A stretch of DNA of 29,362 bases, taken from positions 1 through 29,362 of the IMG/VR virus record IMGVR_UViG_3300051212_000254, one strand, 5' to 3'. Numbering within the stretch: position 1 is the first letter of the stretch; every line of letters starts with the position of its first letter. The translations under genes were made by a program, and so were the position numbers. This stretch comes from a virus. Of this stretch, positions 1-21,709 are shown piece after piece. The notes under the pieces are model-generated. The model did no database searches, was not told the origin of the DNA, and saw only the letters and a list, made by a program, of their open reading frames with translations.

Positions 1-3000
1 GAAGATCCATTCTATCTTCAACACGCTGTGCTGCCACAGCAGTATTCTTAACAATGTCTACTAATTTTTCTTTCAAATACTTAAATGCTTCAACAGTTGC
101 ATCCTTCTGTGCACCTACTACCTTACTGGCTTGGGCACGGAAATATGCACGAGCAGCAGTAATTGTACGGAAGTTACTGTTAAACATCATGTCAAAACGT
201 ACTGCATCAATAATACTAACAATATCTTCTTGACAATCAGCTACACTATAATCAAGTGTTGGGAAGCGATCATTAATATAAGTTGTGATAGCTAACTTAA
301 CAGTATTTTCAGCATTGTTCATTAAAGTACTTGCTGCTACAAGATCTGGATCTACCCAAGTTGTTGTAGCTAATGTTTCAGTTGGATCAGATAAAGTGTC
401 ATCAATATATTTTACAATATCAAGTATACGATCTCTTGCATGATCAGCCGCAGTAGAGTCACCTGCACTGCCACTCTTATTCTGTTCAAGAGTATACAGA
501 GCTACTTTTTCAAGTATGGCGTCTCTTACTTCTTCAAACACAGCAATACTTGCATCCTTTTGATTAGCTAATACTGCTTGAGCACCTGCAATACCACGAT
601 AGTATGCATTAGCTGCTAATTGAGATCTATAATTACTACCAAACATCATGTCAAAACGTACTGCATCAATTACTGCATCAATGTCTTGATTACACTCATC
701 TTGAATGCTTGTACCATTTTGTGTTGGAGCTGTTCCACCAACATTTAAGTAATTAATACTTGGGAATTTGTCTGCCATTAATGTTGTAACATTATTTTTA
801 ACTGCGGTTCTAAATGAACCAGCATCTATAGCAGTGCTCACAGCTACTAAAGTTGAATCAACCCAAGCTGTTGAGGGCTGTGCTAATGCTGTTGGAACTG
901 TTCCTGCATCATCATCGATCTTAGCAATTACAATGTCTACAATCAATGACTTTGCCTTAGCGGATGCTGTACCTGCTGCATCTGCTGTACCAGCACGCTG
1001 AACTTCTCTATTTTGCTGTTGACTTCTTGTAAATGTTAGACCAGTTGTTGAACCTTCCACTGTGGCAATAGCTGTACCGTCAAGATTAACTAATTTAAAC
1101 TCTGTTGTACTAGCTACACTTAACACCTTATAAGACTTTGTAGTAACTGTAACTTGATCAGTTAGGCCTACAATAGCTGCTGCGCCACTGAAAGTGCCTG
1201 TCTTAGCAACTGTAATTCTATCACCTGGTAACAATTCAACTGCTACAGAAGTAGTAAATGTACCATCTGTAGTGAGAGCCTTAGCTTCTACCCCTGTTAA
1301 TGTTGAACTTGCTAACTTAGTTCCTGATCCAACTACCTTTAATACATTAGCCAAATATTTAAATGCTGCTTTTGTTGCATTTAATTCATCTGTATCATTA
1401 CCAAGAGCAGCATTTGCATCTGCACCTACTGCATATGCATCACCTGCAATATGAGTAGCTTGATTACCACCATATGTAATATCATATAGTACTGCATCAA
1501 TTAATAGTTCAACATCTCTCTCGCACTTAACTTTGTTATAGCCAGATGGAGGACTATTGTTTTCAATATATGCTGTAGTTTCTGCAACAAGGAATCTTCT
1601 ATTACTGCTAATGTTTTTAACAGCATGGAAGTAATTTGCATCACCTGCATGAGTACCTGTAGCAGTTGGTTTTGGCATTAAGAATGGTCTTTCTGGAGTA
1701 AAACCTTGTCCATCTTTAATTATTTTATTTAGAAGATCGAAACTTGCATTTATTCTATTCTTAGCCTCAAACTTATTACCACTTGGTTTTACATCTTTCA
1801 GTTGTACAACCTGTGCAACCACTTCCTTAAGTCTTTCATAAGCAGCCACAGTTTGAATGACCTGCTTTGGAATTGTTGACTTAGGAGTTACTGCACCGTC
1901 AAAGTAAGCAATAGCTGCCTGTGTTGTATCAACATTACCACCATATAACAAATCATAACATAGTGCGTCAATTAAGAAACCAACGTCACGACTACATTTA
2001 TCTTTGTTATAGGCATAATTCATGTCTACAAAATCACTTACAGCATTTTTTAATTTGTTAACTGTAGCTGTTGCTGCTAATAATGTATTAAACTTAAGAA
2101 TATTAGCATCAACCCATGCTGTATCTGGTGTGTCAACTGAATGTGGTGTTTGATGAATATTAGTTGTAAAATCAAAATTACTTGGGTTATCAATATAATC
2201 TCTGATCAAATCAACTAATGCCACTGCACGAGCTGCATCTGTACCTGCACCTGCTGTAATCTTAGCAAAGGCCACTGTACCTGCTGCTGCTGTTGCACCT
2301 GCACCTGCTGCTGTGGCTACAAATACTTCACCAACTGCTGGATCAGCATCTGCACCAAGATTAGTCCAATCTGCATCACTGGTTGTTCCCTTGTCTACGA
2401 TTCTATAAGTCTTACCTACTACAATCTTGTTTAGAGGATAAACTTGAGTATTACTTGTGTTTAATAACGCAGCATCACCTTCAGCAACTTGTTCAATAAA
2501 TGTCTTAAATTGTTCGTAAGCATCTCTTGTTAAAGTTTGCTCATTTGAGCCAAGTGCTAATAATACATCACTATTACCACCGTAATATGCACGGGCTGCA
2601 ACTAATGTTTCAAGATTACCACCATAAGTTAAATCATAATATACAGCATCTAAAATATATTCAATGTCACGACGGCAAGCTGTTTGATCATATGATACAC
2701 CACCTTTGTTTAACTCAATCCAAGTGATTAATCTGTCTTCTAAGAACTCACGATTAGCTTCAATTGTGTCACGCACAGCCTTAATATCTGCAACAAACGC
2801 ATTGTCTGTACCAGCTGTTGGTAATGGGAAGCTATAAACTGGTTCAACTGCTGGACCATTCTCAAGTATACTAAGAATAATATCCATGCTACGACTTACA
2901 CGTTGAATGCTTGCGCTTTCTGCTGTTGTTGGATTATCTGGATCTACAGCTTTAACAATTTCTAATAACTTAGTTTTCAAGTATTGGAAACTGGCTAATG

Positions 3001-6000
3001 TAGCAACTTTCTGATCCTTAACCACTGTGCTTGACATAGCACGATAGTAGCTGCGACCAGCAACAATACTACGGAAGTTACTGTTAAACATCATATCATA
3101 GCGTACAGCTTCTACAACATAGCCTACATCACGACGACATTTTTCTCTGTCATAACCAAATAATACATAGTTGTCATTAACGTAATCAGTTACAGCAGTT
3201 TTTGTAGCTTCTTTACCTGCTTGTAATTGAGCAAAACTCTTAGCAAGAGCTGGATCCACCCAATCAATAGCTGGTGTGCTAGCTACAGTTGTCTTATCTG
3301 TAACCGCTGGACTTTCATTTACACTGTCGTCGATAATCTTGATTATTAAATCAACACATGTGCCCATTTCCTTGGCTGCTGTTGCACTACCATCACTACC
3401 ATTTGGACTGCGTACTTGAGTAGTAATATTACCAACTGTTGGAGTCCATGTTAAATCTTGTGCTACATTTTGTACTACTGTCTTAAGATATTCATATGCT
3501 CTTAATGTGGCACTTACTTCATCCATTTGTGTTCCACTTGGATCAAGTTGACTTACTGTGCCAACCACATAACTTTGACCAGCTACGAAACTTTCAAGTG
3601 TACCACCATAAGTTGTGTCATAATATAAAGCATCTAAAATCAAGTTAAGATCACGTCTGCATTTTTCTACATCAAATCCAGCTGGTAAAGAATAATCTGC
3701 TGGAACAATCTTTTCAAATCTCATGGTTGTTGTTAGACCTGATGTACTGGTTGTAAGTACTGCACTGCCATCAAGGTTAACAATCTTAAAACCAGGTGTG
3801 TAAGAATAAACAACACCATTGACTGTTACGTTGCTGGTATCTTCTACTGTGGCAACCTTGTACACACTTGGACTATTATATCCACTGATTGTGGCACCAG
3901 AGAACATTTTTCCACTTATTCTAATCAAATCACCAACTGCAAGAGTTGTAAATGTAGTTTGACCAGTTACTGGATTTATACTAAATGAACCATCTGTTGA
4001 GAAAGCACCTACTGTGCCTTTAAACTTCACACCACCTTTGAGTAACTCAAGTCCTGGGGTATTGATATATGTAAGTACATCATCAATAATGAACTCTCTA
4101 TTCTTTTCAACAAGATCACGTGAACGCTTATATTCTACTGCACGACCTTTCTCAGGGAATGGCATTCTATATTTAGGAGTAACATCCGCACCATTATCTA
4201 ATATATCAATAATGATGTCCATATTGCTTTGAACACTATTGACTGCTAAAGAATTACTCTTAACGAGCTCAGTGACTAATTTTCTTAAGTGTTTGAATGC
4301 ACCAATAGTAGCTAATTTCTGATTACCTGTTACTGTCTTAGCATTTGCTCTTAGATATGCACGACCAGCACTAATACTACGGAAGTTACTGATAAATGCA
4401 GTATCATAAGATAGTGCGTCCATGATAAATTCAACATCACGAGCACACTTATCTCTGTCAAATTCATTTAAAGTGAAGTTCGCATCAATAAAGGCTGTAA
4501 TTTCGTCTTTAATGAATTCTACGTTGTTACGTAAAATATTTACAGCGGTCCAACGATCAAGGTCTTCCTCATTATTTCTAACTGGAATTGGATATGTTAA
4601 TGCTGTACCATAGCCATCAATTGGGCTATAAGCTGTATTATTAACAAGAGCATTAGTCACAATCTGACCAAGATCATTAACTCTTGCACCGTCAAGAATA
4701 GCAATAACGATATCAAATCTTGTGCTAATTTCTGTCTTTGCACTTGGAGCTACAATTCTTGCTAAAGTAATAGCTTTGGCTGCTTTTAAGCTGGCAACTG
4801 TTTGTACTTTCTGTGCACCAACTACTTCACTGGCATAAGCACGTAGATAGCTAATAGCTGCTGTAACTGTTTTATAGTTACTACCAAAAATCATATCGCT
4901 TAAAATAGCGTCAAGAATTAAACCAACGTCTCTGTAACATTTTGGCTTGTTAAAGCTAAAGTTATCAAAGAAGCTGTTAGCCATAAACTTAATTGTTTCT
5001 GTCTTAATCTCTTCTTTAGCTGCAAGTACTGCATCACGAATAGCCTTGTAACTGGTTGGCTGATATGTAACTGTTGGATAACCAGTTGTTGTTGTACCAA
5101 GTGTTAGTTCTGTCGCTGTGTTAACACGAGCGAACTTGGTATCACCATCGCTAATTGTATACCAATTTTGATTGATATAAGCAATCATTTCAGCACGAAT
5201 AAAATCTCTATTAGCCATCAATAAATCAAATGCACGAATCTTATTAACGTCTGTACTGGCTACAAGTTGAATTGGCTGCTTGAGTCTTTGAACACTGTCT
5301 TCAGCATTGTTTGGACCTTCTACAAGAATTTCATTAATGATATCAACAAGATTACCAAGAGCTACAACTTCTGCACTGGTAGCAGCTGGGAAATCTGTAC
5401 GCTGTGGTACAGCTTCTTGCCAAGGATTTGGAGTTGGGCTACATGTAATCACATCACGTACAAGTTCCTTCAAATACTTGTAAGCATTTACAGTCTGCTT
5501 AATCTGATTTGGAAGTACGCTCTTAAGTACATTTGTTTCCTCATTAAAGTCATAATAGTAAATGCCTGCTGTAACAGCTTGACGATTGCCACCATGTACG
5601 AGGTCAAAACAAATACTGTCAACAATAAAGCCAACATCACGAGCACATTTTACTCTGTCATAATCAAATCCAGGAAATGCTCTACCTAAATATGTGATCA
5701 CATCATCCTTGATGTTTGACTTGTTAGCTTGAAGTGTATCAAATGCAGCTTCAAGGTCAGTATCATTTAAACGTTTGCCGTTTGGTTGAATAAAGTCACT
5801 TGTTCCTACAATTTCATTCTCTAAACCTTTTAGGAATACACTGAACAAACCACCAAGCTTGTTAACTTGTGTTTGATTTGTTGGTGTTAAACCCACCTTA
5901 ACCTGTGGTGTATTTGTAGCTGCTTCAATTGTATCTAAAATTACTACACGTTGAGCAAATAATTGAGCACGACCATAAGCATCAATAGTAGCAGGAATTT

Positions 6001-7993
6001 CCTCTGATGCTAAAAGTTGACTTAAACCACTAGCATAATTGTAATAACGCTTTGCTGCATCCACTGTTTGACTATTACCACCATAAGTAATGTCATAGCA
6101 AATAGCATCAATAGCATATCCAATATCTCTACCACAGGTAGCTTGTTTAGCTTCATTAAAACCATAAACTACAATTTGTGGCCAATTTTTCTTAACATAA
6201 TCTATAACTTCAGCAATAACAAATTTCTTATTTTTCTGTAAATTATTAACAAGATCTAATACAGCTTGATCAGTATCTTGTAAACCTGGATATGTTAGAG
6301 CATACGCTGCATCTGTTGGATCAAGTAATTTATTTAGATATGTAACACCTGTAGTTGCACTATCTGGTAATAGAGCTGTTGTTATGATGCCAAAATTAGT
6401 TTGAACTCTTGCTAATAGTGTAGCATCTTCTTGTACGATAGGAGCAATTTGATCTCTTACAAATCTGTATGCTTCAATAGTTTCTGTACGCTGATCATTA
6501 ACTCCAACAAGTTCTGCTGCATTACTCTTTAGATATGTGATAGCAGCTTTAATTGTTTGATAATTTGTACCAAGTATAATATCATTAGCTACTGCTTCAA
6601 TAACATAACCAATATCACGTTTGCACTTTGATGTAATATAAGCAAGATTTGGATAGGAACGCTTAAGGAAATCAATTGTAGCATCCTCAATTTGAGCCTT
6701 TCTATCTAAAATAGTTTGTCTTAAAATTTTCCACTCTGGTTCTGCTGCATCAAGATCAGGTCCAATGATTAATGTTGGACTTAAAGGACCTTCTTCAACA
6801 ATTCTGCTAATAATACTAAATTCTTCTTTAACTATTCGCTTGGCTGTAGCTGATGCACTGGCAGCTGTCAACACTGTAGCGGCAGCTACCTGAGCACGTT
6901 TGATAGCAGCGGCTGTTTGAGCCTGTTGTTGTATACCAGTTGTAATATCATCTTTAGCCCAATAACGTAGACCAGCAAATGTACTTTGAGTAGCACCTTC
7001 ATATAATAAGTCAAATGCTAAACTGTCTACCACAAGACCATTGTCTCTGTCACATGTAGTTTGGTTGTAGTTGGCAAATAATACACCATCACCAATGTTT
7101 GGACGCTTGGCTAAATTCTTAAATGTGATCTGACGACCAGCTGACTTCTTAACAACACCACGATATAGTGGATCACTGGCTCCACGACTTACAAGACCGT
7201 AGTTACCAAATGAGCTGTTTGACAAGTTAACTGAACAGAAACCACCGTTCTCACACATAAAGCTAATGTCACAGCAAATTGTAAAAATAGATACAAGCTG
7301 AGTATTACCTCTGTTCAACATGTGAATACCAATACCACCTTGATTGTACTGAGTAAACGCATCACAAACCATTGAACGTAGACCAGTTGTCACTGCACCG
7401 TCAACACGCATACCTGTACCAGTGGTTGTAATACTTGTTACCGCTTGGGTGTATGGTGATGTTACGATCTCACCAGCACTACCGTCTGGTGGGAAACATA
7501 CTGCCGCACTTGGGGCAATATGGCCTTTAAAATTCATACAGAAGATATAAGCGCCATTGTATACCCAGAAGATATCCTTGGTTGGATTCTTTGGACGTAC
7601 TGTGGTATTACGCAAGTTGTCACCAACAACTGACACACGAGCTGGAACACGCAATGGATTGTCTTCAATATATTCCCCACTCTTTAAGAATATAGTTGTG
7701 CCAGGTGTCGCTATGCTCAGTGCCTTCTTTAGTGTCAAAAAAGCCTGACCTAATGTCTTTCCGCTGTTGCTATCATCACCATTTTTAGCCACATAAAGTA
7801 CATTAGGTACTTCCATTGCTCCAATTTCAATGATTTTCTGAATAGCTGCGAAGCCTTCTGGTTGTTTAATTTCTTGTTTTGTAAACAGTTTACCATCGGC
7901 GGTGTTAAGTGCTAATTCGCCAAGGTCAATGCTATCTAGTGATGGTACTTTGCCAGGTATATCACTACGCTTAAATCTAATATTTGTGCTCAT
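1..7993 (-). CDS. Giant virion fibre/adhesin-like protein, C-terminus beyond window (at least 2664 aa)
   Basis: The reading frame is open from an ATG at 7993 to the left edge. I checked it at 13 conserved Cys codons from 7054 to 235, all in the same frame. The start follows AAAGGA at good spacing. Residues 1-40 (FKRSDIPGK, DLGELALNTADGKLF) look like phage fibre N-termini. Residues 65-300 look like a pectate-lyase-type beta-helix (NGDDSNSG, PGTTIFLKSGEY, VVGDN). From residue 314 onward there are at least 13 repeats of 143-277 residues. Each is headed by C-x-[RQE]-D-[VIL]-x(3)-[IVA]-[IVLM]-[DE]-[AS] and usually F/Y-G-[GS]-N, followed by Ala-rich helices (A-G-x-A-Y, a helical KxLK stretch, VDIV..ILD). 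Long units carry beta-rich inserts. It is the last leftward gene, behind two other fibre genes. A tail fibre or adhesin role is inferred; I do not recognise a named family for the repeat. Confidence 0.85.
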   Translation of the reverse strand, partial: MSTNIRFKRSDIPGKVPSLDSIDLGELALNTADGKLFTKQEIKQPEGFAAIQKIIEIGAMEVPNVLYVAKNGDDSNSGKTLGQAFLTLKKALSIATPGTTIFLKSGEYIEDNPLRVPARVSVVGDNLRNTTVRPKNPTKDIFWVYNGAYIFCMNFKGHIAPSAAVCFPPDGSAGEIVTSPYTQAVTSITTTGTGMRVDGAVTTGLRSMVCDAFTQYNQGGIGIHMLNRGNTQLVSIFTICCDISFMCENGGFCSVNLSNSSFGNYGLVSRGASDPLYRGVVKKSAGRQITFKNLAKRPNIGDGVLFANYNQTTCDRDNGLVVDSLAFDLLYEGATQSTFAGLRYWAKDDITTGIQQQAQTAAAIKRAQVAAATVLTAASASATAKRIVKEEFSIISRIVEEGPLSPTLIIGPDLDAAEPEWKILRQTILDRKAQIEDATIDFLKRSYPNLAYITSKCKRDIGYVIEAVANDIILGTNYQTIKAAITYLKSNAAELVGVNDQRTETIEAYRFVRDQIAPIVQEDATLLARVQTNFGIITTALLPDSATTGVTYLNKLLDPTDAAYALTYPGLQDTDQAVLDLVNNLQKNKKFVIAEVIDYVKKNWPQIVVYGFNEAKQATCGRDIGYAIDAICYDITYGGNSQTVDAAKRYYNYASGLSQLLASEEIPATIDAYGRAQLFAQRVVILDTIEAATNTPQVKVGLTPTNQTQVNKLGGLFSVFLKGLENEIVGTSDFIQPNGKRLNDTDLEAAFDTLQANKSNIKDDVITYLGRAFPGFDYDRVKCARDVGFIVDSICFDLVHGGNRQAVTAGIYYYDFNEETNVLKSVLPNQIKQTVNAYKYLKELVRDVITCSPTPNPWQEAVPQRTDFPAATSAEVVALGNLVDIINEILVEGPNNAEDSVQRLKQPIQLVASTDVNKIRAFDLLMANRDFIRAEMIAYINQNWYTISDGDTKFARVNTATELTLGTTTTGYPTVTYQPTSYKAIRDAVLAAKEEIKTETIKFMANSFFDNFSFNKPKCYRDVGLILDAILSDMIFGSNYKTVTAAISYLRAYASEVVGAQKVQTVASLKAAKAITLARIVAPSAKTEISTRFDIVIAILDGARVNDLGQIVTNALVNNTAYSPIDGYGTALTYPIPVRNNEEDLDRWTAVNILRNNVEFIKDEITAFIDANFTLNEFDRDKCARDVEFIMDALSYDTAFISNFRSISAGRAYLRANAKTVTGNQKLATIGAFKHLRKLVTELVKSNSLAVNSVQSNMDIIIDILDNGADVTPKYRMPFPEKGRAVEYKRSRDLVEKNREFIIDDVLTYINTPGLELLKGGVKFKGTVGAFSTDGSFSINPVTGQTTFTTLAVGDLIRISGKMFSGATISGYNSPSVYKVATVEDTSNVTVNGVVYSYTPGFKIVNLDGSAVLTTSTSGLTTTMRFEKIVPADYSLPAGFDVEKCRRDLNLILDALYYDTTYGGTLESFVAGQSYVVGTVSQLDPSGTQMDEVSATLRAYEYLKTVVQNVAQDLTWTPTVGNITTQVRSPNGSDGSATAAKEMGTCVDLIIKIIDDSVNESPAVTDKTTVASTPAIDWVDPALAKSFAQLQAGKEATKTAVTDYVNDNYVLFGYDREKCRRDVGYVVEAVRYDMMFNSNFRSIVAGRSYYRAMSSTVVKDQKVATLASFQYLKTKLLEIVKAVDPDNPTTAESASIQRVSRSMDIILSILENGPAVEPVYSFPLPTAGTDNAFVADIKAVRDTIEANREFLEDRLITWIELNKGGVSYDQTACRRDIEYILDAVYYDLTYGGNLETLVAARAYYGGNSDVLLALGSNEQTLTRDAYEQFKTFIEQVAEGDAALLNTSNTQVYPLNKIVVGKTYRIVDKGTTSDADWTNLGADADPAVGEVFVATAAGAGATAAAGTVAFAKITAGAGTDAARAVALVDLIRDYIDNPSNFDFTTNIHQTPHSVDTPDTAWVDANILKFNTLLAATATVNKLKNAVSDFVDMNYAYNKDKCSRDVGFLIDALCYDLLYGGNVDTTQAAIAYFDGAVTPKSTIPKQVIQTVAAYERLKEVVAQVVQLKDVKPSGNKFEAKNRINASFDLLNKIIKDGQGFTPERPFLMPKPTATGTHAGDANYFHAVKNISSNRRFLVAETTAYIENNSPPSGYNKVKCERDVELLIDAVLYDITYGGNQATHIAGDAYAVGADANAALGNDTDELNATKAAFKYLANVLKVVGSGTKLASSTLTGVEAKALTTDGTFTTSVAVELLPGDRITVAKTGTFSGAAAIVGLTDQVTVTTKSYKVLSVASTTEFKLVNLDGTAIATVEGSTTGLTFTRSQQQNREVQRAGTADAAGTASAKAKSLIVDIVIAKIDDDAGTVPTALAQPSTAWVDSTLVAVSTAIDAGSFRTAVKNNVTTLMADKFPSINYLNVGGTAPTQNGTSIQDECNQDIDAVIDAVRFDMMFGSNYRSQLAANAYYRGIAGAQAVLANQKDASIAVFEEVRDAILEKVALYTLEQNKSGSAGDSTAADHARDRILDIVKYIDDTLSDPTETLATTTWVDPDLVAASTLMNNAENTVKLAITTYINDRFPTLDYSVADCQEDIVSIIDAVRFDMMFNSNFRTITAARAYFRAQASKVVGAQKDATVEAFKYLKEKLVDIVKNTAVAAQRVEDRMDL
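182..211. repeat. 30-bp direct repeat, copy 1
   Basis: An exact 30-bp match to 641-670, 459 bp away, covering the codons of the V-R-F-D-M-M-F motif in the last two units visible in the giant gene. A partly overlapping 25-bp stretch (166-190) also recurs exactly at 3070-3094. Identity at synonymous positions suggests recent duplication or conversion between F-x-S-N units. Confidence 0.9.
235..7054 (-). repeat. At least 13 protein repeats headed by C-x-R-D inside the giant gene
   Basis: The Cys codons of successive units start at 7054, 6625, 6136, 5647, 4939, 4447, 3661, 3139, 2677, 1996, 1525, 694 and 235 (residues 314, 457, 620, 783, 1019, 1183, 1445, 1619, 1773, 2000, 2157, 2434 and 2587). 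Spacing is mostly 143-174 residues, with 227-277 where an extra domain is inserted. Two flavours recur: one with YGGN (for example YDLTYGGNLET at 2677) and one with F-x-S-N-[FY] (for example YDMMFNSNFRS at 3139). DNA identity is low except between neighbouring or same-flavour copies, so most of the array is old. Confidence 0.9.
641..670. repeat. 30-bp direct repeat, copy 2
   Basis: Second exact copy of the 30-bp stretch at 182-211, in the repeat unit whose Cys codon starts at 694. Confidence 0.9.
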
Positions 7994-8053: not shown

Positions 8054-9721
8054 TTAGTACTCCCCACAATCAATGGTTGTGTCTATTAACTTACCACCCT
8101 TAATATAACCTTTTACATTAAGGTCTTTTGAAATATTTGTGTCGCCCTCAACTTCTAATTCTCTCTGAACTTTTACACTATCTTCAACCTCCAAGCTCTG
8201 GCTAACTCTTGCTGAAGCTTCAACATACAAGTTGTTGTCTACTGCAAAGTTACCTGCGATAGCTAAATCTCTATTAATTTGTAAATTTCCATCTACTGAC
8301 AAATTATTATTAACATTGGTAACACCTTCACTGCTACCAATTTCAATATTCGTTGCCTCACCTGCAAAGTTAACAGTCTTAGCTGTGGTATTTGCAAGAT
8401 TAAACTCTGTGGTGCTAACTGTTAAATCACCACCATCAATGTTGACATCACCGTCTACATCTAAATTTTGACCTACATGAACATTTGCATCTACATCTAA
8501 ATTTTGACCTACATTCATGTCCAAGTTTACTTCTAAATTATTATTAACGTTTGTAGTACCTGTTGTTGCTCCAATCTCAATTGTTGTGGCAGCACCTGCA
8601 AAGTTTACTGTAGTTGCCATGGTATTAGCCAAATTAAAAATTGGTTGGCTTACAGTTAAATCCCCACCATCAATGTTAAGATCACCGTCTACATCTAAAT
8701 TACTGTTTACAGTCAAATTACCATCAACATCTAAGTTATTACGAACATTAGTAGTACCTGAAGTGGCTCCTACAATAAGATTTGTAGCAGCACCTGCAAA
8801 GTTAACAGTTTCAGCAGTGTCAGGAATTAAATTAAATGTTGTAGTGGTTACTTTTAAATCACCCCCATCAATAGTAACATCTCCATCTACTTCAAGATCA
8901 TGATTAATATTTGTTTTACCAGTTGGAGCTCCTATTTCTACGAGTGTAGCTGCTCCAGCAAAATTAATTGTTTGAGCATATGTGTTTAACAGATTAAACA
9001 CATTTTGATTTGTTGTTAAATCACCACCTTGTATTTCTAAATCCTTAGTAACAGTTAAATTTTCTGCTACAACTGCGTCACCTTTCAAAGTAATAAGAGT
9101 TGGCAACCCTACAATACCAGTAGCGTCCTGTCTCATTATTGATGAATCTATCTTAAAGGCGTAATCAAAACCTTTTGGACCTACATATCTATAACCAAAT
9201 ACATAGATAACATGACTGCCTGTCATACCAGTTGGTATACTATTACCATAAAAATGTAGTATGCCAGCTTGATAGTCAAAATACCATTCACCAGTACCTA
9301 ATATACCATCAGCAAATATCTGTGTACCACCACTATTGCTTGGGTCTGTTAGACCACTTGCTCCATAGTAAACTTTTACTCTATAACTATTTGTAACATT
9401 AACAGTATCAAACTCTGGTGGTATCCAATCTGTTAGACCTGTTTTCCATGTTGGATATACACTGCCACTCATTCTTTGACTGGTAGTATCTGCTGTACAT
9501 TCTACTCTATTGTTTTGTAGGTATCCTGTAACAGTGCCTATAGTTGCATTGGCTGTGGCAGGGACCAAATAGGCATTGAGCCACAGACTATCCCCTCTAT
9601 TAAGAGTAGGACTGGCTATTGACTCATTACTTACACTCTTGTTGGCAGCTGTATCAGTTTTAGCTACACCTGATAACTTCTTTAATAATAAATCAACTTT
9701 GGTTGCGTCAGTTACGGCCAT
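8054..9721 (-). CDS. Repetitive tail-fibre-like structural protein, 555 aa
   Basis: Starts at 9721 after AGGAT, 12 nt beyond the end of the preceding 933-residue gene, so the two are probably co-transcribed. Residues 90-210 form a head domain (DWIPPEFDTVNV, GTGEWYFDYQAGILHF) of a kind seen in fibre proteins of marine T4-like phages. Residues 215-500 hold four copies of a unit with FNLxNTxAxTVNFAGAAT, IGAxxGxTNVxNNL and VDGDxxIDGGDLTV, with NFAGAAT near residues 253, 307, 373 and 451. The short Gly/Asn/Asp-rich strands suggest a trimeric beta-helical shaft. The C-terminus is a run of LEVEGD/LNVKG strands ending in DTTIDCGEY. No enzymatic motif is visible. It is probably a fibre or a baseplate-attached shaft; the exact role is unknown. 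Confidence 0.8.
   Translation of the reverse strand: MAVTDATKVDLLLKKLSGVAKTDTAANKSVSNESIASPTLNRGDSLWLNAYLVPATANATIGTVTGYLQNNRVECTADTTSQRMSGSVYPTWKTGLTDWIPPEFDTVNVTNSYRVKVYYGASGLTDPSNSGGTQIFADGILGTGEWYFDYQAGILHFYGNSIPTGMTGSHVIYVFGYRYVGPKGFDYAFKIDSSIMRQDATGIVGLPTLITLKGDAVVAENLTVTKDLEIQGGDLTTNQNVFNLLNTYAQTINFAGAATLVEIGAPTGKTNINHDLEVDGDVTIDGGDLKVTTTTFNLIPDTAETVNFAGAATNLIVGATSGTTNVRNNLDVDGNLTVNSNLDVDGDLNIDGGDLTVSQPIFNLANTMATTVNFAGAATTIEIGATTGTTNVNNNLEVNLDMNVGQNLDVDANVHVGQNLDVDGDVNIDGGDLTVSTTEFNLANTTAKTVNFAGEATNIEIGSSEGVTNVNNNLSVDGNLQINRDLAIAGNFAVDNNLYVEASARVSQSLEVEDSVKVQRELEVEGDTNISKDLNVKGYIKGGKLIDTTIDCGEY
8454..8514. repeat. 25-bp direct repeat pair within the fibre shaft
   Basis: A 25-bp sequence at 8454-8478 recurs exactly at 8490-8514, offset by 36 bp (12 codons). 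It encodes V-G-Q-N-L-D-V-D and adds one shaft strand pair in frame, which looks like recent slippage or duplication. Confidence 0.9.
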
Positions 9722-15407: not shown

Positions 15408-16106
15408 TCAATTTAATAAACTGACGTTTCTTAAATGTTCTGGATTTTTACCGTCTGTATGAAAGATAGTGGGAGGATGACCTCGAGGCCCATATATTGC
15501 TCCACGAATAGGACTACTGGTCAAATATTCTTCTAATCCATATTCACGACCAAATCCAACATAATGTGCATGTTTAGCTGCTTCTGCATGCCATCTTTGA
15601 CGATTAATAATATGAGGATTATTACTTACAGCATTTACCATACTATAGGGAAATACACTACCTTCATAGTCCACCCAATCCATATCATGACCAAAACTGG
15701 CATGTGCGTCAGGATGATTACCATGCACTTTTCGATTAAATCTCATGTGTAGAATGTTGTCCTTACGCATTCCATCAACTATTTGATCTAAACTGTGCAT
15801 GATACGATCACTATAAAATTGCCAATCATGCTCAAGCATGAATAAAAATTCAGATTTACTTTCAAATACAGCAAGGTGATAACCGTGACTGAGACCTCCT
15901 ACTTCATGATTTACCTTAGGAAAAATTTTACCTAAAGCATCTATATATTCAAATGCTTTTTCTTGATTAGGGTTTTTGTCACACCAAACAGTTACTGGAA
16001 TGTCTACTTTAAATGTATCTTTGAAACTTTGATATGTTGTTTCTATGTGCCAAGTATCAGGCGCATTAATTGTTGAATTTGTAAAAATATGCAGTTCTAT
16101 ACTCAT
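15408..16106 (-). CDS. Glycosyltransferase-like protein (GT-A type), 232 aa
   Basis: Starts at 16106 after AGGAACC. The order of elements fits a small nucleotide-sugar glycosyltransferase of the GT-A fold: a beta-alpha start (IELHIFTNSTINAPDTWHIE), VTVWCDKNP, a Gly-rich turn (VGGLSHGYHLAVFES), and then FLFMLEHDWQFYS at residues 87-99, where E-H-D-W sits where the metal-binding D-x-D is expected. A region with HIINRQRWHAEA follows, and then GLEEYL. It lies just after the gp23 terminator and before the fibre genes. It may decorate capsid, fibres or host glycan; the substrate is unknown. Family membership is inferred from pattern only. Confidence 0.55.
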   Translation of the reverse strand: MSIELHIFTNSTINAPDTWHIETTYQSFKDTFKVDIPVTVWCDKNPNQEKAFEYIDALGKIFPKVNHEVGGLSHGYHLAVFESKSEFLFMLEHDWQFYSDRIMHSLDQIVDGMRKDNILHMRFNRKVHGNHPDAHASFGHDMDWVDYEGSVFPYSMVNAVSNNPHIINRQRWHAEAAKHAHYVGFGREYGLEEYLTSSPIRGAIYGPRGHPPTIFHTDGKNPEHLRNVSLLN

Positions 16107-16188: not shown

Positions 16189-17367
16189 TTAGCTAAATTT
16201 AACGTTAGCTGTTGTAATTCCAACTTTGCCCAAATAGTCTTGAGCATTACCAAGAGAACTTGCTGTATTTGTCAACTCTACATAACCATAACGTGTCATA
16301 AATGATACGACTGGTTCGAATGTAGCTGGATCTAATACAACACCACTGCTCATCAATGGAATGTATGGGCAGTAGAATGCAGCAGCATCACTCTCACTTG
16401 TACCTTTGTAACCAACAAGGATAGGTGATGTGTCACTTGCATATGTGTTTACATAAATCTTCATTGCGCTATTAAGTGTACCAACAAGTTTTGTATTTGT
16501 TGGAGCTTCGAACGTACCTTCTGTTGTACGAGCGAATGCACTTGTTGTTGCACTTTGTAGGATTGTTAATACAAATGGACTTACAACTGCCCAATTTGCA
16601 GCACCACGACGTGTACGTTGTGCAATGATGTTTGCTACACGATTGATTAAAACTGCTAAAGCAGCATGTTCATCACCAACAAATGTAGCTGTACCACTTA
16701 CTGTAGCCTGATCAAAATTAGCTAATGGTAGACCTGCCAAGCTGTTTAGGCTGGCAAGAATTTCCTGATCAATTTCAGCTGTAATTTCTTGAGCAAGAGC
16801 AGCCATAATTTCTGCTTCTACATCAATACCATGCTGACTTTGCATATCTTGAGCTGCCTCAAATGTCCAGCGAGCGCTTAACTTACGAGTTTTCGCTTCA
16901 ACTGTTTGCTTGAGGATTTGAATGCTCATTCTACGACCAGGAATACCTTCCATTGTCGCTGTACTTGCAGCCTTACCGGAATTAGCACCGGAATACTGCT
17001 CAGCAATCTTGAATGGGCTTAATGCCTCTTCACCAGCTGTTGTTCCAACGATATCGCCGTTTGCGCCAACTGTATCAGCGTAACGTACTCTCAATGTATG
17101 GATTTGACCAACTGGTCCAGTTAGTGGTTGTACACCAACCAACTCGTTTGCAATAACGGTTGGCATGACACGACGGATCACTGGAAGGATCACGCGGTTT
17201 AATGTTGCGACGTTGCCAGCAGAAGTTGTACCAGCGGAAGCACTTTCTGCGAGATACTTACGAGTATTCTCTAAAGTTACACCCATCACTGATTTTTTTG
17301 TGCCTTGGAGGCCTTCGAGTAGAGCCTCTTTTGTCTCCTGCCAACGCTTTGTTAGTAGTTCAGACAT
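16189..17367 (-). CDS. gp23: Major capsid protein, T4 gp23-like, 392 aa
   Basis: Forms the hexamers of the icosahedral head. It starts at 17367 after AAGGAG. Sequence segments fit gp23: a basic/acidic N-terminal delta-like region, then VILPVIRRVMPTVIANELVG, VQPLTGPVGQIHTLRVRYAD and later RTRRGAANWAVVSPFV, ILVGYKGTSESDAAAFYCPY and FMTRYGYVELT. Prohead protease sites in T4 have the form [LI]-x-E; Y-L-A-E at residues 38-41, just before SASAGTTSAG, is a plausible maturation site. At 392 residues it is shorter than T4 gp23 (521). Its position directly after scaffold gp22 and protease gp21 matches the T4 order. Confidence 0.95.
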   Translation of the reverse strand: MSELLTKRWQETKEALLEGLQGTKKSVMGVTLENTRKYLAESASAGTTSAGNVATLNRVILPVIRRVMPTVIANELVGVQPLTGPVGQIHTLRVRYADTVGANGDIVGTTAGEEALSPFKIAEQYSGANSGKAASTATMEGIPGRRMSIQILKQTVEAKTRKLSARWTFEAAQDMQSQHGIDVEAEIMAALAQEITAEIDQEILASLNSLAGLPLANFDQATVSGTATFVGDEHAALAVLINRVANIIAQRTRRGAANWAVVSPFVLTILQSATTSAFARTTEGTFEAPTNTKLVGTLNSAMKIYVNTYASDTSPILVGYKGTSESDAAAFYCPYIPLMSSGVVLDPATFEPVVSFMTRYGYVELTNTASSLGNAQDYLGKVGITTANVKFS

Positions 17368-17377
17368 TTCTTTCTCC

Positions 17378-18478
17378 TTAATTAAGTCCAGCTAGGCGAC
17401 GGATATCAACGATGTTACTATCGGGTTCGCTGCTGTTTGTCTTTGCTGTGGTAACCTTGTTACCGGTAATTTCTTTTGCCTCTACAAGTGCCTGTCTTTT
17501 CTTGGTTGTACCAGCACTACCTTCTATAATAGTTGGTAGATACTTGTTAAAACTTTCTGTTAGTCGTGTTGTCTGTACGCTCTCTAAAAGTTCACTCATA
17601 ATTCCCTTTTGTTCTGCGTTTAATGGAGCAAGTAGCTCACCCATAACTTCTTTGCGACGGGCTGCTTCTTTTAGACGACGAATTTCCATATCCTTGCTTT
17701 CTATGACTCTCTGTGCCTTCACTGCTACTGTATTAGCCATCGTAATAGCGGAGTCTTTCTTGTTTATAACCTTGAGCAATTTACTTGTTTCTGATTTCTC
17801 ATTTAAGTAACTATTCTGGTATTCGTTGCTAAATGCTTCAAATATCTTACGACCAAAGTCTGCTCTGCGGGCTGCTTCAATGTCTTCTTTTAGTTGTACA
17901 AGTTCATTGTTTAAATTACTTGTAACAACCTGTTCCACCATTACTGCGGCACGCTTTACAAATTCTTTCTTCATTTTTGCTAACTGGCTACGACCTTCTT
18001 TGATCAATTTTACCTTAGTGTTAGCAAGATCCTTCTTATCTGCATAAAATTCTGCAATTTCATTAGCGAGTGCTTCTACCACAAACTCTTCAAGTTTGAA
18101 GAATTTTTTTGCCATAGATTTTTGATCTTCATGCAATTCCACTACTTCTTTGGCAAGACTACGCACGATAAATTCTTTTAAAACTGCGGTATCACGCTTC
18201 ATCTTCATTGCATATTTGGCTTTGGCTTCAGCTAATTGTTTACGATCTTCTGCGAACTCAGCGATTTCAGGAGCAAGCTGATCTGCTACCATTCTGTCAA
18301 TGGCTTCAATCATTACTCCACGATCATGCTCATAACGTTGAGCAAACTCTTCTCTTAATTGCTGACTAACTTGTTCGCGATTTTCGGCTACACGGGCTTC
18401 CCATGCTTCCTCAATCTGAGTACGAATATCTTCGCTAATCACATTGTTTTCAAATAAGCTTTTTAATACATCCAACAT
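17378..18478 (-). CDS. gp22: Prohead core scaffold, T4 gp22-like, 366 aa
   Basis: Forms the internal core on which the prohead shell assembles and is later degraded by gp21. It is almost wholly alpha-helical and charged, with coiled-coil character (residues 20-320). Four helical repeats carry L-[AN]-x-E-[IVL]-x-[EQ]-[FL] near residues 68, 108, 137 and 189. Several [LI]-x-E tripeptides could serve as cleavage sites. The start at 18478 follows AGGAGA, and the gene lies 10 nt before gp23 and 16 nt after gp21. Identification rests mainly on composition plus position in the 21-22-23 order. Confidence 0.85.
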   Translation of the reverse strand: MLDVLKSLFENNVISEDIRTQIEEAWEARVAENREQVSQQLREEFAQRYEHDRGVMIEAIDRMVADQLAPEIAEFAEDRKQLAEAKAKYAMKMKRDTAVLKEFIVRSLAKEVVELHEDQKSMAKKFFKLEEFVVEALANEIAEFYADKKDLANTKVKLIKEGRSQLAKMKKEFVKRAAVMVEQVVTSNLNNELVQLKEDIEAARRADFGRKIFEAFSNEYQNSYLNEKSETSKLLKVINKKDSAITMANTVAVKAQRVIESKDMEIRRLKEAARRKEVMGELLAPLNAEQKGIMSELLESVQTTRLTESFNKYLPTIIEGSAGTTKKRQALVEAKEITGNKVTTAKTNSSEPDSNIVDIRRLAGLN

Positions 18479-18494
18479 TGTGATTCTCCTCTTG

Positions 18495-19121
18495 TTATCG
18501 GAGCTTGCCTATTACTGCTAATAGGCTCTCTTTAATGTACTTCTGCGCCTTGGGGTCTTTCTTCACTTCCTCCGCTATGCGTAAGGCTCTATGCCCACCA
18601 CGATTGTTCATCAAGTGTTCATAAATTGGTGTTGGATAAGCCCCTGGGGCACTGGGTTGAGCTACCACATCCACTGTGATAATCTCAAAATCACTGACCT
18701 TGCCAGTACCATCTCCACTGACATTGCCGGATCCTCTACTGCTTACTCCCAACTTTACTCCACTTTCCAACATTGTTCTAACAAGTTGTCCCATGGGTGT
18801 TGGCAGTATCTTAAACTTGCCATAACCATTTGGACCGTCCATCCACATTTCTGTAATCATGTGGCTGACACGATCCAAATTGATCTTTAGGTCATCTGGA
18901 TGATCTACTTCACCTAATACGCTGTATCCTCCTGAGATCTGATCGTTCAAGGTTTTGACAGCTCTTTCTATCTCGTCTACAGGATATATTCTCTGGTTGG
19001 CATTTTTGATACCTCCCTGAATACAAATACCTTTCATGTAAAGGTCTTTGCCGTTCTCTCCATGACTTTCGACCACGACACGTGCCTGGTCGAAACTCAA
19101 GTTTTCTCGTAAGTAGCTCAT
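18495..19121 (-). CDS. gp21: Prohead maturation protease, T4 gp21-like, 208 aa
   Basis: Serine protease that digests the scaffold and trims the capsid proteins inside the prohead. The likely catalytic His is H74 in G-E-V-D-H-P-D. The Ser is in L-G-V-S-S-R-G-S-G (S127/S128), and an Asp (D151) lies in F-E-I-I-T-V-D-V-V, the arrangement of the T4 gp21/herpes assemblin-like fold. Length matches T4 gp21 (212 aa). The SD before 19121 is weak, and the upstream gene ends 10 nt earlier, so translation may be coupled. Confidence 0.93.
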   Translation of the reverse strand: MSYLRENLSFDQARVVVESHGENGKDLYMKGICIQGGIKNANQRIYPVDEIERAVKTLNDQISGGYSVLGEVDHPDDLKINLDRVSHMITEMWMDGPNGYGKFKILPTPMGQLVRTMLESGVKLGVSSRGSGNVSGDGTGKVSDFEIITVDVVAQPSAPGAYPTPIYEHLMNNRGGHRALRIAEEVKKDPKAQKYIKESLLAVIGKLR

Positions 19122-19131
19122 CTATGTGTGT

Positions 19132-20169
19132 TTACTTGGCTCTTTTTGGTGCGCCGTTTAGTGGACTCTTTGTGTTTAATCCACCAACTTGACCTGCTGC
19201 ACCACCTGTGCCTGCACCCCAAGCCTTACCTTCTGCTTCACCTTTCTTCTCTGCACCATGACCAGGCTCTTTCTTCTTAAAGCCTGTTTTACCAGCATTA
19301 CCACCTGGCTTGTTTACATTGCCAAAATCTTCAATTTGTGGCTTGCTCTGCTTAAAAACACCGTTGCCTTGTATTGTACGACCTGCACCTACTTCTACAG
19401 GAGCTGCACCATTACGGCCACTTAAAATGTTTTGATTTGTACCACCCATGTCATTTTTCATGTTGTCGATGATACTTTTTGTGTTGACACCATCATCACC
19501 CATCTTACCCCAAGTGTTATAGTTGCCACCACCTACTTTTTCTACATATTCACGGATGAAGTCTTCATCTGTCTGTTCATCATCTGAATCATCTTTTTCA
19601 TCGTCATCATCACGTTTTTCAAAGGCCATGGCATCTTTAACATCGTCAGCTGGGCCTTCATCATCCATACCCATGTCACCGCCCATGTCACCGCCCATGT
19701 CATCACCACCTAACTCATCACCTTCTTCACCGCCTAACTTGGCTTCTAATTCATCTTTAATAGCTTCGATTTCAGCTTCGAGATCATCAAGACGATCTGT
19801 TACATCGCCTTCATCACCGAACTCATCTCCGCCCATATCCATTTCATCATCACCACCTAGATCATCCAAGCCGCCTTCTTCATCATCGGCACCAACATCG
19901 CCTAACATGTCATCTGATGCATCCGCGCCAAATGCTTCCATTCCTGCATTAGGATCTTCCATATCCATGTTTTCTTCAGTAGAATCATCATCATCATCAT
20001 GCTGTGATTCATCTGTTTCTTGATTTTCATCAAAATCATCGGCTAATAAATTCTCATAAATTTCGCGGCTTTTTGCCACTACGATATCGTGAAATAATTC
20101 ACGTGCTTTAGCTTCCTCATCGTTAATAAGGTACTCAAGCATCTGTTCGAACTTTGAACGATCTCCCAT
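19132..20169 (-). CDS. Acidic prohead core protein, gp67/gp68-like, 345 aa
   Basis: Starts at 20169 after AGGAG. Residues 1-45 (EYLINDEEAKARELFHDIV, then SREIYENLL) are helical and recall the N-terminus of T4 core protein gp67 (D-x-x-x-A-x-x-L-F). Residues 45-200 are very rich in Asp, Glu, Gly and Met (DDLGGDDEMDMGGDEFGD), another gp67 feature. The C-terminus is Gly/Lys-rich and basic (EKKGEAEGKAWGAG). It sits between the portal and protease genes, where T4 keeps genes 67 and 68, but at 345 residues it is far longer than either. A core/scaffold role is likely; exact orthology is uncertain. Confidence 0.6.
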   Translation of the reverse strand: MGDRSKFEQMLEYLINDEEAKARELFHDIVVAKSREIYENLLADDFDENQETDESQHDDDDDSTEENMDMEDPNAGMEAFGADASDDMLGDVGADDEEGGLDDLGGDDEMDMGGDEFGDEGDVTDRLDDLEAEIEAIKDELEAKLGGEEGDELGGDDMGGDMGGDMGMDDEGPADDVKDAMAFEKRDDDDEKDDSDDEQTDEDFIREYVEKVGGGNYNTWGKMGDDGVNTKSIIDNMKNDMGGTNQNILSGRNGAAPVEVGAGRTIQGNGVFKQSKPQIEDFGNVNKPGGNAGKTGFKKKEPGHGAEKKGEAEGKAWGAGTGGAAGQVGGLNTKSPLNGAPKRAK

Positions 20170-20246
20170 TTTGTTCTCCTATAGGTAATGAGCTGTCAAG
20201 TAGTATTTACATATAACTTAAAAAAATAGTGTCTAATGGTAGAAAA

Positions 20247-20858
20247 TTAACGAATTTTCTGCCATTCCTCCTTGATTTCTTTAAATTTTTCATATGTCAT
20301 TTGGTAATAGTTATCATACCTCCAATTAGTATCGAAAAAATTTGGAATCGTCACTCTATAGTATTTTATAGAAGGATTAGTTTTTATAATAAAGTCAGTT
20401 TGTTTTAACCAGTTTCCATAATATACTGCCGCTTGATCACTGCCTTTATAGTTAGGCGTGTCAGCAAATACATTATTAACTTTACCATCTAATCCTTGAT
20501 AATCAAAACCAAAAATATAAATTTCATTGGCACCTTGAGTTGATGCTAAGTTAAGAGCTGTTGGTCCAGAACTCCAGCCGTGATTCGGCTCTATGTAATT
20601 AAAATGCTTGTACCATGCTTTCTTCTGACCGATATAAGTCCATACACTATGATTTTTTGGATAATCTGTAGCGTTTATCTCCTCCAACATCTTTCTATCA
20701 ACTGCTATAAGATAATCAGGAGCATATTCCCTATAGACTGCGTTACAAGCATACACAGCACCATAGGGTTTTACATCATCAAATTCAATGTTTAGTCGTG
20801 TTTTACCATTGCCAAACACGAAATATCTAACTACATTGGTTTTCTGCGACACATCCAT
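20247..20858 (-). CDS. DUF115/GT29-like glycan-modification protein, 203 aa
   Basis: Segments recall the DUF115 / sialyltransferase-like fold: VFGNGKTRLN at residues 14-23 (nucleotide-binding turn), VYACNAVYREYAPDYLIAVD at 35-54, and GWSSGPTALNLASTQ followed by EIYIFGFDY at about 93-122. These families transfer or bind CMP-activated sugars. The start at 20858 lies 28 nt inside the end of the methyltransferase-like gene and lacks a clear SD, so translation is probably coupled. It is set among head genes, where T4 has none. It may glycosylate a virion protein or host surface; substrate unknown. Confidence 0.5.
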   Translation of the reverse strand: MDVSQKTNVVRYFVFGNGKTRLNIEFDDVKPYGAVYACNAVYREYAPDYLIAVDRKMLEEINATDYPKNHSVWTYIGQKKAWYKHFNYIEPNHGWSSGPTALNLASTQGANEIYIFGFDYQGLDGKVNNVFADTPNYKGSDQAAVYYGNWLKQTDFIIKTNPSIKYYRVTIPNFFDTNWRYDNYYQMTYEKFKEIKEEWQKIR

Positions 20859-21436
20859 GCTACACTTTGAAACTCATCACGCATATAGACTTCTAATTGA
20901 TTTCTATCAATAGTTTCTTGTATATCAGCGTCAGTGATCTCACACCAATTCCAGATACGATGATTAATAGCTTCCTCAAAATATTCCACATTTCTAACAT
21001 AATCGTGTGCCATAACAAAGTCACCAGGTTTCAAATGGTCTGTTAATAAATTAACTTCCATTTTCTTCAATCCACCATCACAAAGCAATACTGTAGTTCC
21101 AGGACGTTGTAAATGTCCTACTATTTCATCTCTGTTACTTTCACGAATATTTTGATAATCATCTGTAAAAAGATTACAAATTCTAACAAGAATACCTTCA
21201 TTACTCAGCATACTATACCATCCTTGCGGATGTAATTCGTAACTGATCATTTGATATTCATGTCCCACTTCTTTTAAAATTCTATTAAGAGCAAGACTAG
21301 TGGCTCCTTGCCCTATACCAATTTCTACAACTGTTGTAGGTTTTACTTCATTAAAAAATTGACGAAAAGGATGCTGAAAATCCTTATGCTGTTGACAAAT
21401 TAATCCATCAATAGGACCGTGTTCGAATGGTTGCAT
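20831..21436 (-). CDS. Class I SAM-dependent methyltransferase-like protein, 201 aa
   Basis: Starts at 21436 after AAGGAA. TTVVEIGIGQGATSLAL at residues 34-50 is a Rossmann motif I for S-adenosylmethionine. It is followed by MISYELHPQGWY (acidic motif II), GTTVLLCDGGLKK and GDFVMAHDYVRNVEYFEEA, a pattern close to the CmcI/cephalosporin-hydroxylase-like and related small-molecule methyltransferases. The substrate could be a sugar, given the DUF115/GT29-like gene that overlaps its end, but this is inference. The cassette separates the portal and its small neighbour from the core proteins. Confidence 0.65.
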   Translation of the reverse strand: MQPFEHGPIDGLICQQHKDFQHPFRQFFNEVKPTTVVEIGIGQGATSLALNRILKEVGHEYQMISYELHPQGWYSMLSNEGILVRICNLFTDDYQNIRESNRDEIVGHLQRPGTTVLLCDGGLKKMEVNLLTDHLKPGDFVMAHDYVRNVEYFEEAINHRIWNWCEITDADIQETIDRNQLEVYMRDEFQSVAWMCRRKPM

Positions 21437-21456
21437 ATTTGTTCCTTATAAATGAT

Positions 21457-21699
21457 TTAGGCGGCAGGCTGTGCAGGCTCAGTACCATACATTTTCTGTA
21501 CGAATTCCATTTCATCTTCGGAATCCAAAATGTGCGCTTCAGAAGCCTTACGTAAATCATTTATCTGTCTTAGTGTCAACCTGGTTTTTCTTGTGTCACT
21601 ACGCTGTAATTCTTCAATATCCCGTGAGGCATCAAATCTAAAATCATTAGAAATTTTCTGTGTTTCAGGATTAAGATAAAATAGTTCTCGAAGAATCAT
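21457..21699 (-). CDS. Small protein between portal and core genes, 80 aa
   Basis: A short, charged, probably helical protein (FRFDASRDIEELQRSDTRKT, LRQINDLRKASEAHI) ending in an acidic stretch and QPAA. It starts at 21699, 10 nt after the portal stop. No SD is visible; instead AATAAATA ends 4 nt before the ATG. T4 gene 67 has the same position and length (80 aa) but a different composition. It is in the right place for a portal- or core-associated factor, but I do not recognise the family. Confidence 0.6.
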   Translation of the reverse strand: MILRELFYLNPETQKISNDFRFDASRDIEELQRSDTRKTRLTLRQINDLRKASEAHILDSEDEMEFVQKMYGTEPAQPAA

Positions 21700-21709
21700 A
21701 GTGTATTTA

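What the first reader, a model, noticed from the sequence alone, without database searches (positions are those of the whole stretch)
235..7054. Giant protein built of a C-x-R-D-headed helical repeat array
At least 13 units of about 143-277 residues follow a beta-helix N-terminus, and the array runs on past the edge. The invariant Cys, the R-D pair and the Y/F-G-[GS]-N element are more constrained than the rest. I know of no named family for this repeat. The Cys residues could form disulfides or a metal site only if paired between units.
Basis: seen in the sequence. Interest (0 to 1): 0.7.

Follow-up and report, generated by a model that had tools for sequence, protein, structure and literature searches.

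The report
Phage tail fibre of phycobiliprotein-like domains
A giant tail-fibre protein of an aquatic jumbo phage is a string of about 13 (about 35 in full-length relatives) copies of the domain that holds the coloured bilin pigments of cyanobacterial light antennae. Each copy keeps the pigment-attaching cysteine, which offers a first concrete answer to why aquatic phages carry pigment-making genes.

Summary
In detail: window 2-7993 (minus) is one open frame, 2664 aa and cut by the window edge. A beta-helix N-terminus is followed by 13 C-x-[RQE]-D-headed units. Full-length relatives in IMG/VR are 5995-6904 aa with about 35 units.

"No named family" is wrong. The unit is a phycobiliprotein-like (bilin-binding globin) domain. 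PF00502 hits above its gathering cut-off; the unit profile finds alpha-phycocyanins first in the PDB, with the repeat Cys on bilin-binding Cys84 and R/D on Arg86/Asp87; the AF2 model (pLDDT 91) matches only phycobiliproteins in its top 50 rows, Z 15.4-16.5. CXRD is the published bilin-attachment motif (PMC10151467).

Cys is in 151 of 155 non-redundant units. Among cultured phages, tblastn finds the array only in cyanophages (145 of 145 records). The 400-kb relative encodes adjacent heme oxygenase and bilin reductase; all 8 reductase-bearing contigs of 150 kb or more examined carry the repeat.

Proposed: a tail fibre of tandem biliprotein domains, chromophorylated with phage-made or host bilins. 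Fold and homology are near certain; bilin attachment in virions is inferred. I found no report of this. Counter-evidence: P-SSM4 units lost Cys, and Mosig and P-SSM2 have reductases but no array.

The parts
2..7993 (-). Giant tail-fibre-like ORF (2664 aa here, 3' end off the window)
   Evidence: PHROG tail fiber/virion structural families E 1e-118 to 1e-42
7087..7993 (-). N-terminal module with beta-helix (DUF1565-like), shared with cyanophage tail fibres such as P-SSM2 (44% over aa 1-285)
   Evidence: (PF07602)
6788..7075 (-). Unit 1 (CDRD), lacks helices A/B, abuts the beta-helix
6371..6760 (-). Unit 2 (CKRD)
5813..6289 (-). Unit 3 (CGRD); overlaps the stretch that matches PF00502 above gathering score
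5312..5767 (-). Unit 4 (CARD)
5126..5257 (-). Partial unit: A/B helices only
   Evidence: aa 913-956, 19.8 bits
4688..5077 (-). Unit 5 (CYRD)
4187..4567 (-). Unit 6 (CARD)
3320..4141 (-). Unit 7 (CRRD), A/B-helix stretch (4058-4141) separated from the E-H part (3320-3682) by an insert
   Evidence: aa 1285-1312 and 1438-1558
2852..3274 (-). Unit 8 (CRRD), the unit modelled by AlphaFold2
2186..2797 (-). Unit 9 (CRRD) with an insert of ~60 aa before its last helix
1706..2128 (-). Unit 10 (CSRD)
   Evidence: phycocyanin alpha NCBIfam TIGR01338 E 6e-4, below cut-off
1283..1651 (-). Unit 11 (CERD)
398..877 (-). Unit 12 (CNQD: Arg replaced)
5..367 (-). Unit 13 (CQED: Arg replaced), cut by the window edge
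8054..9721 (-). Neighbouring fibre-like structural ORF (555 aa)
   Evidence: phrog_6002 virion structural protein E 7.5e-35
16189..23437 (-). T4-type head block (MCP, scaffold, protease, portal) placing the gene in a virion-structure region of a jumbo myovirus

Best explanation
The gene encodes a giant tail fibre whose shaft is a tandem array of phycobiliprotein-like domains (CXRD bilin-binding globins). Shown: the domain identity; the conservation of the bilin-ligating Cys with the ligand-contacting Arg and Asp; the array's restriction, among cultured phages as seen by tblastn, to cyanophages; and a heme oxygenase plus bilin reductase cassette in the most complete relative. Inferred: during assembly each domain takes up a linear tetrapyrrole through a thioether to its Cys. 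In non-cyanobacterial hosts the bilin would come from the phage's own HemO and PcyA/X-type reductase, in cyanobacteria mainly from the host. No phage-type lyase was found in the freshwater phages, so attachment there would be autocatalytic, as in BBAGs; cyanophages could use their CpeT-type lyases. The virion would then carry dozens of bilins on its fibres. Their use (light-dependent adsorption, photoprotection, or rigidifying the shaft) is open; I favour light-responsive fibre behaviour or stabilisation. Sub-confidences: phycobiliprotein-like fold and homology 0.96; virion tail fibre 0.88; bilin covalently bound in the freshwater phages 0.55; a light-related role 0.3.
For: Family: PF00502 E 3e-6, 27.7 bits over cut-off 22.2; 24 of 146 single units hit PF00502, next family 2; the unit profile finds R-phycocyanin first in the PDB (E 2e-4), the top 26 hits are phycocyanin alpha chains, and Cys/Arg/Asp fall on Cys84/Arg86/Asp87; hhalign against 10 phycobiliproteins, 112 columns, E 3.4e-7, probability 93; true phycobiliproteins outscore their reversals, 9 of 10 above every reversal. 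Fold: AF2 pLDDT 91, six helices; VIA Z 15.4-16.5, all 50 rows phycobiliproteins; Foldseek probability 1.00 to the ApcE bilin domain, phycoerythrin and smURFP. Binding triad: Cys 97%, Asp 99%, Arg 86% in 155 units below 65% identity; 36/36 Cys in ten Synechococcus phages; the adjacent Asp is lost only together with Cys (4/12 vs 0/325) while the structural Asp+14 is not. CXRD is the stated bilin-attachment motif of phycobiliproteins and BBAG-1/-3, and BBAGs take up bilins without lyase (PMC10151467). Bilin supply: HemO and bilin reductase adjacent in the 400-kb relative; 8/8 reductase-bearing contigs of 150 kb or more carry the repeat, while the DnaK-selected reductase-negative 236-kb contig and the cultured non-cyano phages Phosso, 2.275.O, 121Q, Atu_ph07 and T4 carry neither. 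A freshwater phage HemO/PcyA pair is biochemically active and makes PCB (PMC11480375). Specificity: units hit 145 phage records, all cyanophages.
Against: P-SSM4 encodes PcyA and CpeT, yet its three repeat units lack Cys. Pelagibacter phage Mosig (PcyX and HemO) and P-SSM2 (bilin reductase, heme oxygenase) have no detectable repeat, so the reductase does not require the array. Arg is E/Q/K in ~14% of units and D/T in syn9. Reductase-positive contigs of 138 and 141 kb lack the repeat, possibly because they are fragments. Several of the 8 contigs look closely related (G028/G040 share near-identical layouts), so they are fewer than 8 independent cases. Two repeat-bearing contigs of 160-168 kb lack a detected reductase. 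No CpeT or CpeS lyase in the freshwater phages. Identity to phycobiliproteins is only 7-16%. No bilin, colour or virion spectrum was observed.
Confidence: 0.55

Rival explanations
1. The phycobiliprotein-like fold was captured by phages and is used only as a stackable structural module of the fibre. No bilin is bound; Cys, Arg and Asp are kept by descent or for packing.
For: P-SSM4 and a few distant units lost Cys and keep the fold signature. Some phages with bilin genes have no array. Inserts and partial units suggest modular building use.
Against: Cys is 97% conserved among units that are otherwise under 65% identical, and the adjacent Asp is lost only when Cys is lost, whereas a purely structural Asp (+14) is retained. 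The array is found only in cyanophages among cultured phages and in reductase-bearing jumbo contigs.
Confidence: 0.33
2. The Cys serves inter-unit disulfides or a metal site.
For: One conserved Cys per unit.
Against: Only one conserved Cys per unit, at the bilin-ligating position of the fold; no conserved His or second Cys among the 22 most conserved positions; assembly takes place in a reducing cytoplasm (general knowledge).
Confidence: 0.04
3. The array mimics phycobiliproteins to interact with host phycobilisomes, bilin lyases or NblA-type degradation, or acts as a bilin sink during infection rather than in the virion.
For: Restriction to cyanophages among cultured phages; CpeT lies near the repeat-bearing tail gene in S-CAM3.
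Against: The gene sits among virion structural genes and carries tail-fibre modules at its N-terminus; the freshwater jumbo phages lack psbA in the sequence at hand and are not related to cyanophages by capsid.
Confidence: 0.06
4. The similarity to phycobiliproteins is convergence of a short helical motif, not homology.
For: Low pairwise identity, 7-16%.
Against: Independent agreement of Pfam, PDB profile search, hhalign over 112 columns, whole-domain structure (Z about 16, top 50 all phycobiliproteins) and functional residues at the same place; PF00502 also rings in other repeat-bearing phages and not in phages without the repeat.
Confidence: 0.03

Closest known systems
Light-harvesting phycobiliproteins (PF00502: phycocyanin, allophycocyanin, phycoerythrin)
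   Same: Globin-like helix order A-B-E-F-G-H; Cys84-x-Arg86-Asp87 triad in the same place; conserved N, Y, G around it
   Different: Phage domains are fused in tens in one chain, lack strong alpha/beta subunit identity and part of the N-terminal X/Y helices, have Asp instead of Arg93, and sit in a tail fibre
BBAGs (bilin biosynthesis-associated globins, PMC10151467)
   Same: CXRD bilin-binding globins of non-photosynthetic bacteria associated with HO and bilin reductase; self-assemble without lyase
   Different: BBAGs are single-domain cellular proteins; phage units are virion-type repeats; placement in the BBAG tree not tested
T4-like cyanophage tail-fibre / virion structural proteins (PHROG 5342, 4527, 701, 18802; T4-GC 830, 397, 507)
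   Same: Same repeat recognised by profile in S-PM2, syn9, S-CAM3, P-HM2 and others; BFVD models share the fold
   Different: Cyanophage members carry 2-6 recognised units; the freshwater jumbo-phage protein is almost entirely repeat (about 35 units)
smURFP and ApcE bilin domain
   Same: Foldseek matches; autocatalytic bilin attachment known for these (general knowledge)
   Different: Cellular or engineered single domains

Membership tests
Phycobiliprotein / bilin-binding globin superfamily (PF00502) | Profile match above curated cut-off | tested here: met
   PF00502 27.7 bits vs 22.2 for the window protein; G009:361396 30.6 bits. Most single units are below cut-off; 24/146 match at E<=1
Phycobiliprotein / bilin-binding globin superfamily (PF00502) | Globin-like helical fold of phycobiliproteins | tested here: met
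   AF2 pLDDT 91; Z 15.4-16.5 to 50 phycobiliprotein entries
Phycobiliprotein / bilin-binding globin superfamily (PF00502) | CXRD motif with bilin-ligating Cys84 and Arg86/Asp87 | tested here: met
   Aligned residue for residue; Cys 97%, Asp 99%, Arg 86%
Phycobiliprotein / bilin-binding globin superfamily (PF00502) | Covalently bound bilin | not testable with these tools
   Needs protein chemistry
Light-harvesting phycobiliproteins proper | Alpha/beta heterodimers forming trimers and hexamers in phycobilisomes | not testable with these tools
   Tandem fusion in a tail fibre and Arg93 replaced by Asp speak against; 3-unit AF2 model is too weak (pLDDT 68) to give the inter-domain arrangement
BBAG | Association with HO and bilin reductase genes | tested here: inconclusive
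   Same genome, not same cluster: G009 array at 104-123 kb, HO/reductase at 340 kb; Mosig and P-SSM2 counterexamples
BBAG | Phylogenetic placement in the BBAG-1/BBAG-3 clade | not tested
   No BBAG sequences fetched; identity too low for a reliable tree
Heme globins | Proximal His and heme-globin profile match | tested here: not met
   No heme globin among profile hits to E 10 in the PDB; no conserved His among the 22 most conserved positions
T4-like phage tail-fibre proteins | Match to tail-fibre / virion structural PHROGs and fibre N-terminal module | tested here: met
   phrog_5342 E 3.9e-118, phrog_17885 E 7.8e-64; 44% to P-SSM2 tail fiber over aa 1-285

The most novel reading that the evidence does not exclude
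Virions of aquatic myophages are pigmented: their giant tail fibres are covalent biliprotein arrays carrying tens of bilins, made by the phage's own heme oxygenase and bilin reductase or taken from the cyanobacterial host, and the bilins give the fibre a light-dependent function such as gating adsorption (adsorption of several marine cyanomyoviruses is reported to be light-dependent, PMC2984593; S-PM2's fibre keeps CxRD in 5 of 5 units).
Probability: 0.3. Interest if true: 0.96.

Novelty: new variant of a known kind. Interest (0 to 1): 0.86.

Why it matters
The role of phage-encoded bilin reductases was called a mystery in 2010 (PMC3037559), and the co-occurrence of phage heme oxygenase and bilin reductase genes "still enigmatic" in 2024, when bilin-binding globins were named only as a possibility (PMC11480375). 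A phage-encoded acceptor protein with dozens of intact bilin sites gives a concrete, cheap-to-test answer. It also extends phycobiliprotein-like domains to virus particles, suggests a source of self-assembling fluorescent repeat proteins, and offers a molecular candidate for light-dependent cyanophage adsorption.

Tried and rejected
Disulfide or metal site: rejected, one conserved Cys per unit at the bilin position. Heme globin: rejected, no profile hit and no conserved His. Cyanophage identity of the window: not supported; capsid and portal are closest to jumbo myoviruses of Sinorhizobium, Vibrio, Salmonella and E. coli, and no psbA was found in 12 relatives; host unknown. Strict pairing of array and reductase: rejected (Mosig, P-SSM2). 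Strict rule "Prochlorococcus phages lose Cys": rejected, P-HM2 keeps two CxRD units. S-CREM2 long tail fibre as virion-proteome proof: its 4971-aa fibre has no repeat by profile. Lyase search (CpeT, CpeS) in freshwater phages: nothing, but lyases of the HEAT type (CpcE/F) were not searched. DnaK-selected control set: 0/18 repeats but mostly fragments, so weak. 3-unit AF2 model: domains seen, arrangement unreliable. A residue-level pocket comparison in 3D was not possible (no coordinates available). Paper searches for phage phycobiliprotein-like virion proteins: none found in the open library; subscription papers not covered.

Full report
WHAT IS THERE. The window (29,362 b, a virus record) is a minus-strand T4-type structural block: MCP, scaffold, protease, portal, and a baseplate hub protein on the plus strand. 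At its low end lies an ORF of 2664 aa, open at the edge (window 2-7993, minus). It begins with a tail-fibre N-terminal module containing a DUF1565 beta-helix, 44% identical over aa 1-285 to a P-SSM2 tail fibre. Relatives in IMG/VR (L002-L010) are complete: 5995-6904 aa with 36-38 profile matches (a few partial) of a 141-position repeat, closed by a conserved ~100-aa cap. PHROGs label the matching families tail fibre or virion structural protein.

WHAT THE UNIT IS. Pfam gives one recurring hit, PF00502 Phycobilisome: E 3e-6 and above gathering score for the window protein, and 24 of 146 separate units against 2 for the next family. A profile of 146 units searched against the PDB returns phycocyanin alpha chains as its first 26 hits (best E 2e-4), and the alignment puts the repeat's Cys, Arg and Asp on phycocyanin Cys84, Arg86 and Asp87: "akCeRDvgliidAvryDltyggN" over "[23 protein letters not shown]". 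Profile-profile comparison with ten phycobiliproteins taken from cyanobacterial plasmids aligns 112 columns, E 3.4e-7, probability 93; reversed phycobiliproteins score below nine of the ten real ones. An AlphaFold2 model of unit 8 has pLDDT 91 and six helices. The second-look aligner gives Z 15.4-16.5, and all 50 rows are phycobiliproteins; Foldseek lists globin-coupled sensors, the ApcE bilin domain, phycoerythrins and smURFP at probability 1.00. Independent predicted models of cyanophage tail proteins (S-PM2, S-CAM1, S-H9-1 and others) share the fold. Rockwell et al. 2023 (PMC10151467) state that CXRD holds the Cys needed for covalent chromophore attachment, that BBAG-1/-3 of non-photosynthetic bacteria share it, and that BBAGs take up bilins without lyases.

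IS THE SITE UNDER CONSTRAINT? In 155 units below 65% identity: Cys 97%, Asp+3 99%, Asp+14 100%, Tyr+30 99%, Arg+2 86%. In the window's clade 268/270 units have Cys; ten Synechococcus phages 36/36; P-HM2 (Prochlorococcus MED4) 2/2; P-SSM4 0/3. Where Cys is lost the neighbouring Asp can go too (4/12 against 0/325 with Cys; not corrected for relatedness), while the structural Asp+14 stays (0/12 lost). This pattern fits a ligand site better than a packing role, but relatedness weakens the count.

WHERE IT OCCURS. tblastn of the units over 50,697 phage records hits 145 records, all cyanophages. The profile finds nothing in cultured jumbo relatives (Phosso, Vibrio 2.275.O, 121Q, Atu_ph07), T4, HTVC008M, Mosig or P-SSM2. 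In a scan of one genome per 84,980 bacterial and archaeal species only three loci in a single MAG turned up; the one examined is phage-fibre-like. So the array appears phage-specific at the sensitivity of that scan.

BILIN SUPPLY. The longest relative (G009, 399,796 b) encodes, in one direction, DnaK, Hsp20, ClpS, heme oxygenase and a bilin reductase. Its reductase finds 331 stretches in IMG/VR. Of the contigs of 150 kb or more in the set searched (G009, G018, G028, G029, G040, G041, G047, G054) all eight carry the repeat; at 128-141 kb two of four do. Several look closely related, so this is fewer than eight independent cases. A DnaK-bearing 236-kb contig without reductase lacks the repeat. 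Exceptions are real: Mosig and P-SSM2 have bilin reductases without the array; P-SSM4 has PcyA and CpeT but Cys-less units; some repeat-bearing contigs of 160-186 kb show no reductase, possibly as fragments. CpeT was found only in syn9 and P-SSM4 of the set, CpeS in none; in S-CAM3 a CpeT gene lies close upstream of the repeat-bearing tail gene, and in P-SSM2 a heme oxygenase lies two genes upstream of a tail fibre with the same N-terminal module. A HemO/PcyA pair from a freshwater phage has been shown to make PCB, its purpose "still enigmatic", with bilin-binding globins suggested as one possibility (PMC11480375).

MECHANISM. Shown: domain identity, intact ligation triad, phage context, bilin genes in the same genome as the array in the 400-kb relative (the window itself is too short to show them). 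Inferred: thioether attachment of a bilin in each domain during infection, giving a pigmented fibre. Speculative: light-dependent behaviour; adsorption of several marine cyanomyoviruses is reported to be light-dependent (PMC2984593) and S-PM2's fibre keeps CxRD in 5/5 units, a coincidence worth testing, not evidence. The main rival is that the fold is only a building block.

NOVELTY. I found no paper describing phycobiliprotein-like domains in virion proteins; the library lacks most subscription journals. The domain family is known; tens of copies in one phage fibre is a new variant. If the bilins are there, it is a kind of virion I know no description of.

Noticed in passing
L288 15935-16405 and 17437-28458 (Synechococcus phage S-CAM3): A CpeT-type chromophore lyase gene lies just upstream of the 3.7-kaa repeat-bearing tail protein, separated by an endonuclease V gene and tRNAs.
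   Followed up: partly
L187 10836-13854 (P-SSM2): Heme oxygenase lies two genes upstream of a tail fibre that shares the window protein's N-terminal module.
   Followed up: no
L181 (Pelagibacter phage Mosig): Heme oxygenase, PcyX, a ferrochelatase-like gene and several 2OG-Fe(II) oxygenases form one run next to neck and tail genes, with no repeat array found in the genome.
   Followed up: partly
L020 (G009 334000-347000): DnaK, Hsp20 and a ClpS-like adaptor lie directly upstream of heme oxygenase and bilin reductase in the 400-kb phage; a porin-like ORF is nearby.
   Followed up: no
window 20247-20858: ORF weakly matching a sialyltransferase family (phrog_4603) sits inside the T4-type head block, with other small enzyme-like ORFs at 15408-16106 and 20831-21436.
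   Followed up: no
window 9734-12535: 933-aa structural-looking ORF of unknown-function family phrog_8578 next to the giant gene.
   Followed up: no
L271-L273 (Rhodobacteraceae MAG Water_Bin34): The only 'bacterial' carriers of the repeat; L271 holds a giant phage-fibre-like ORF, so these are likely phage contigs binned into a MAG.
   Followed up: partly
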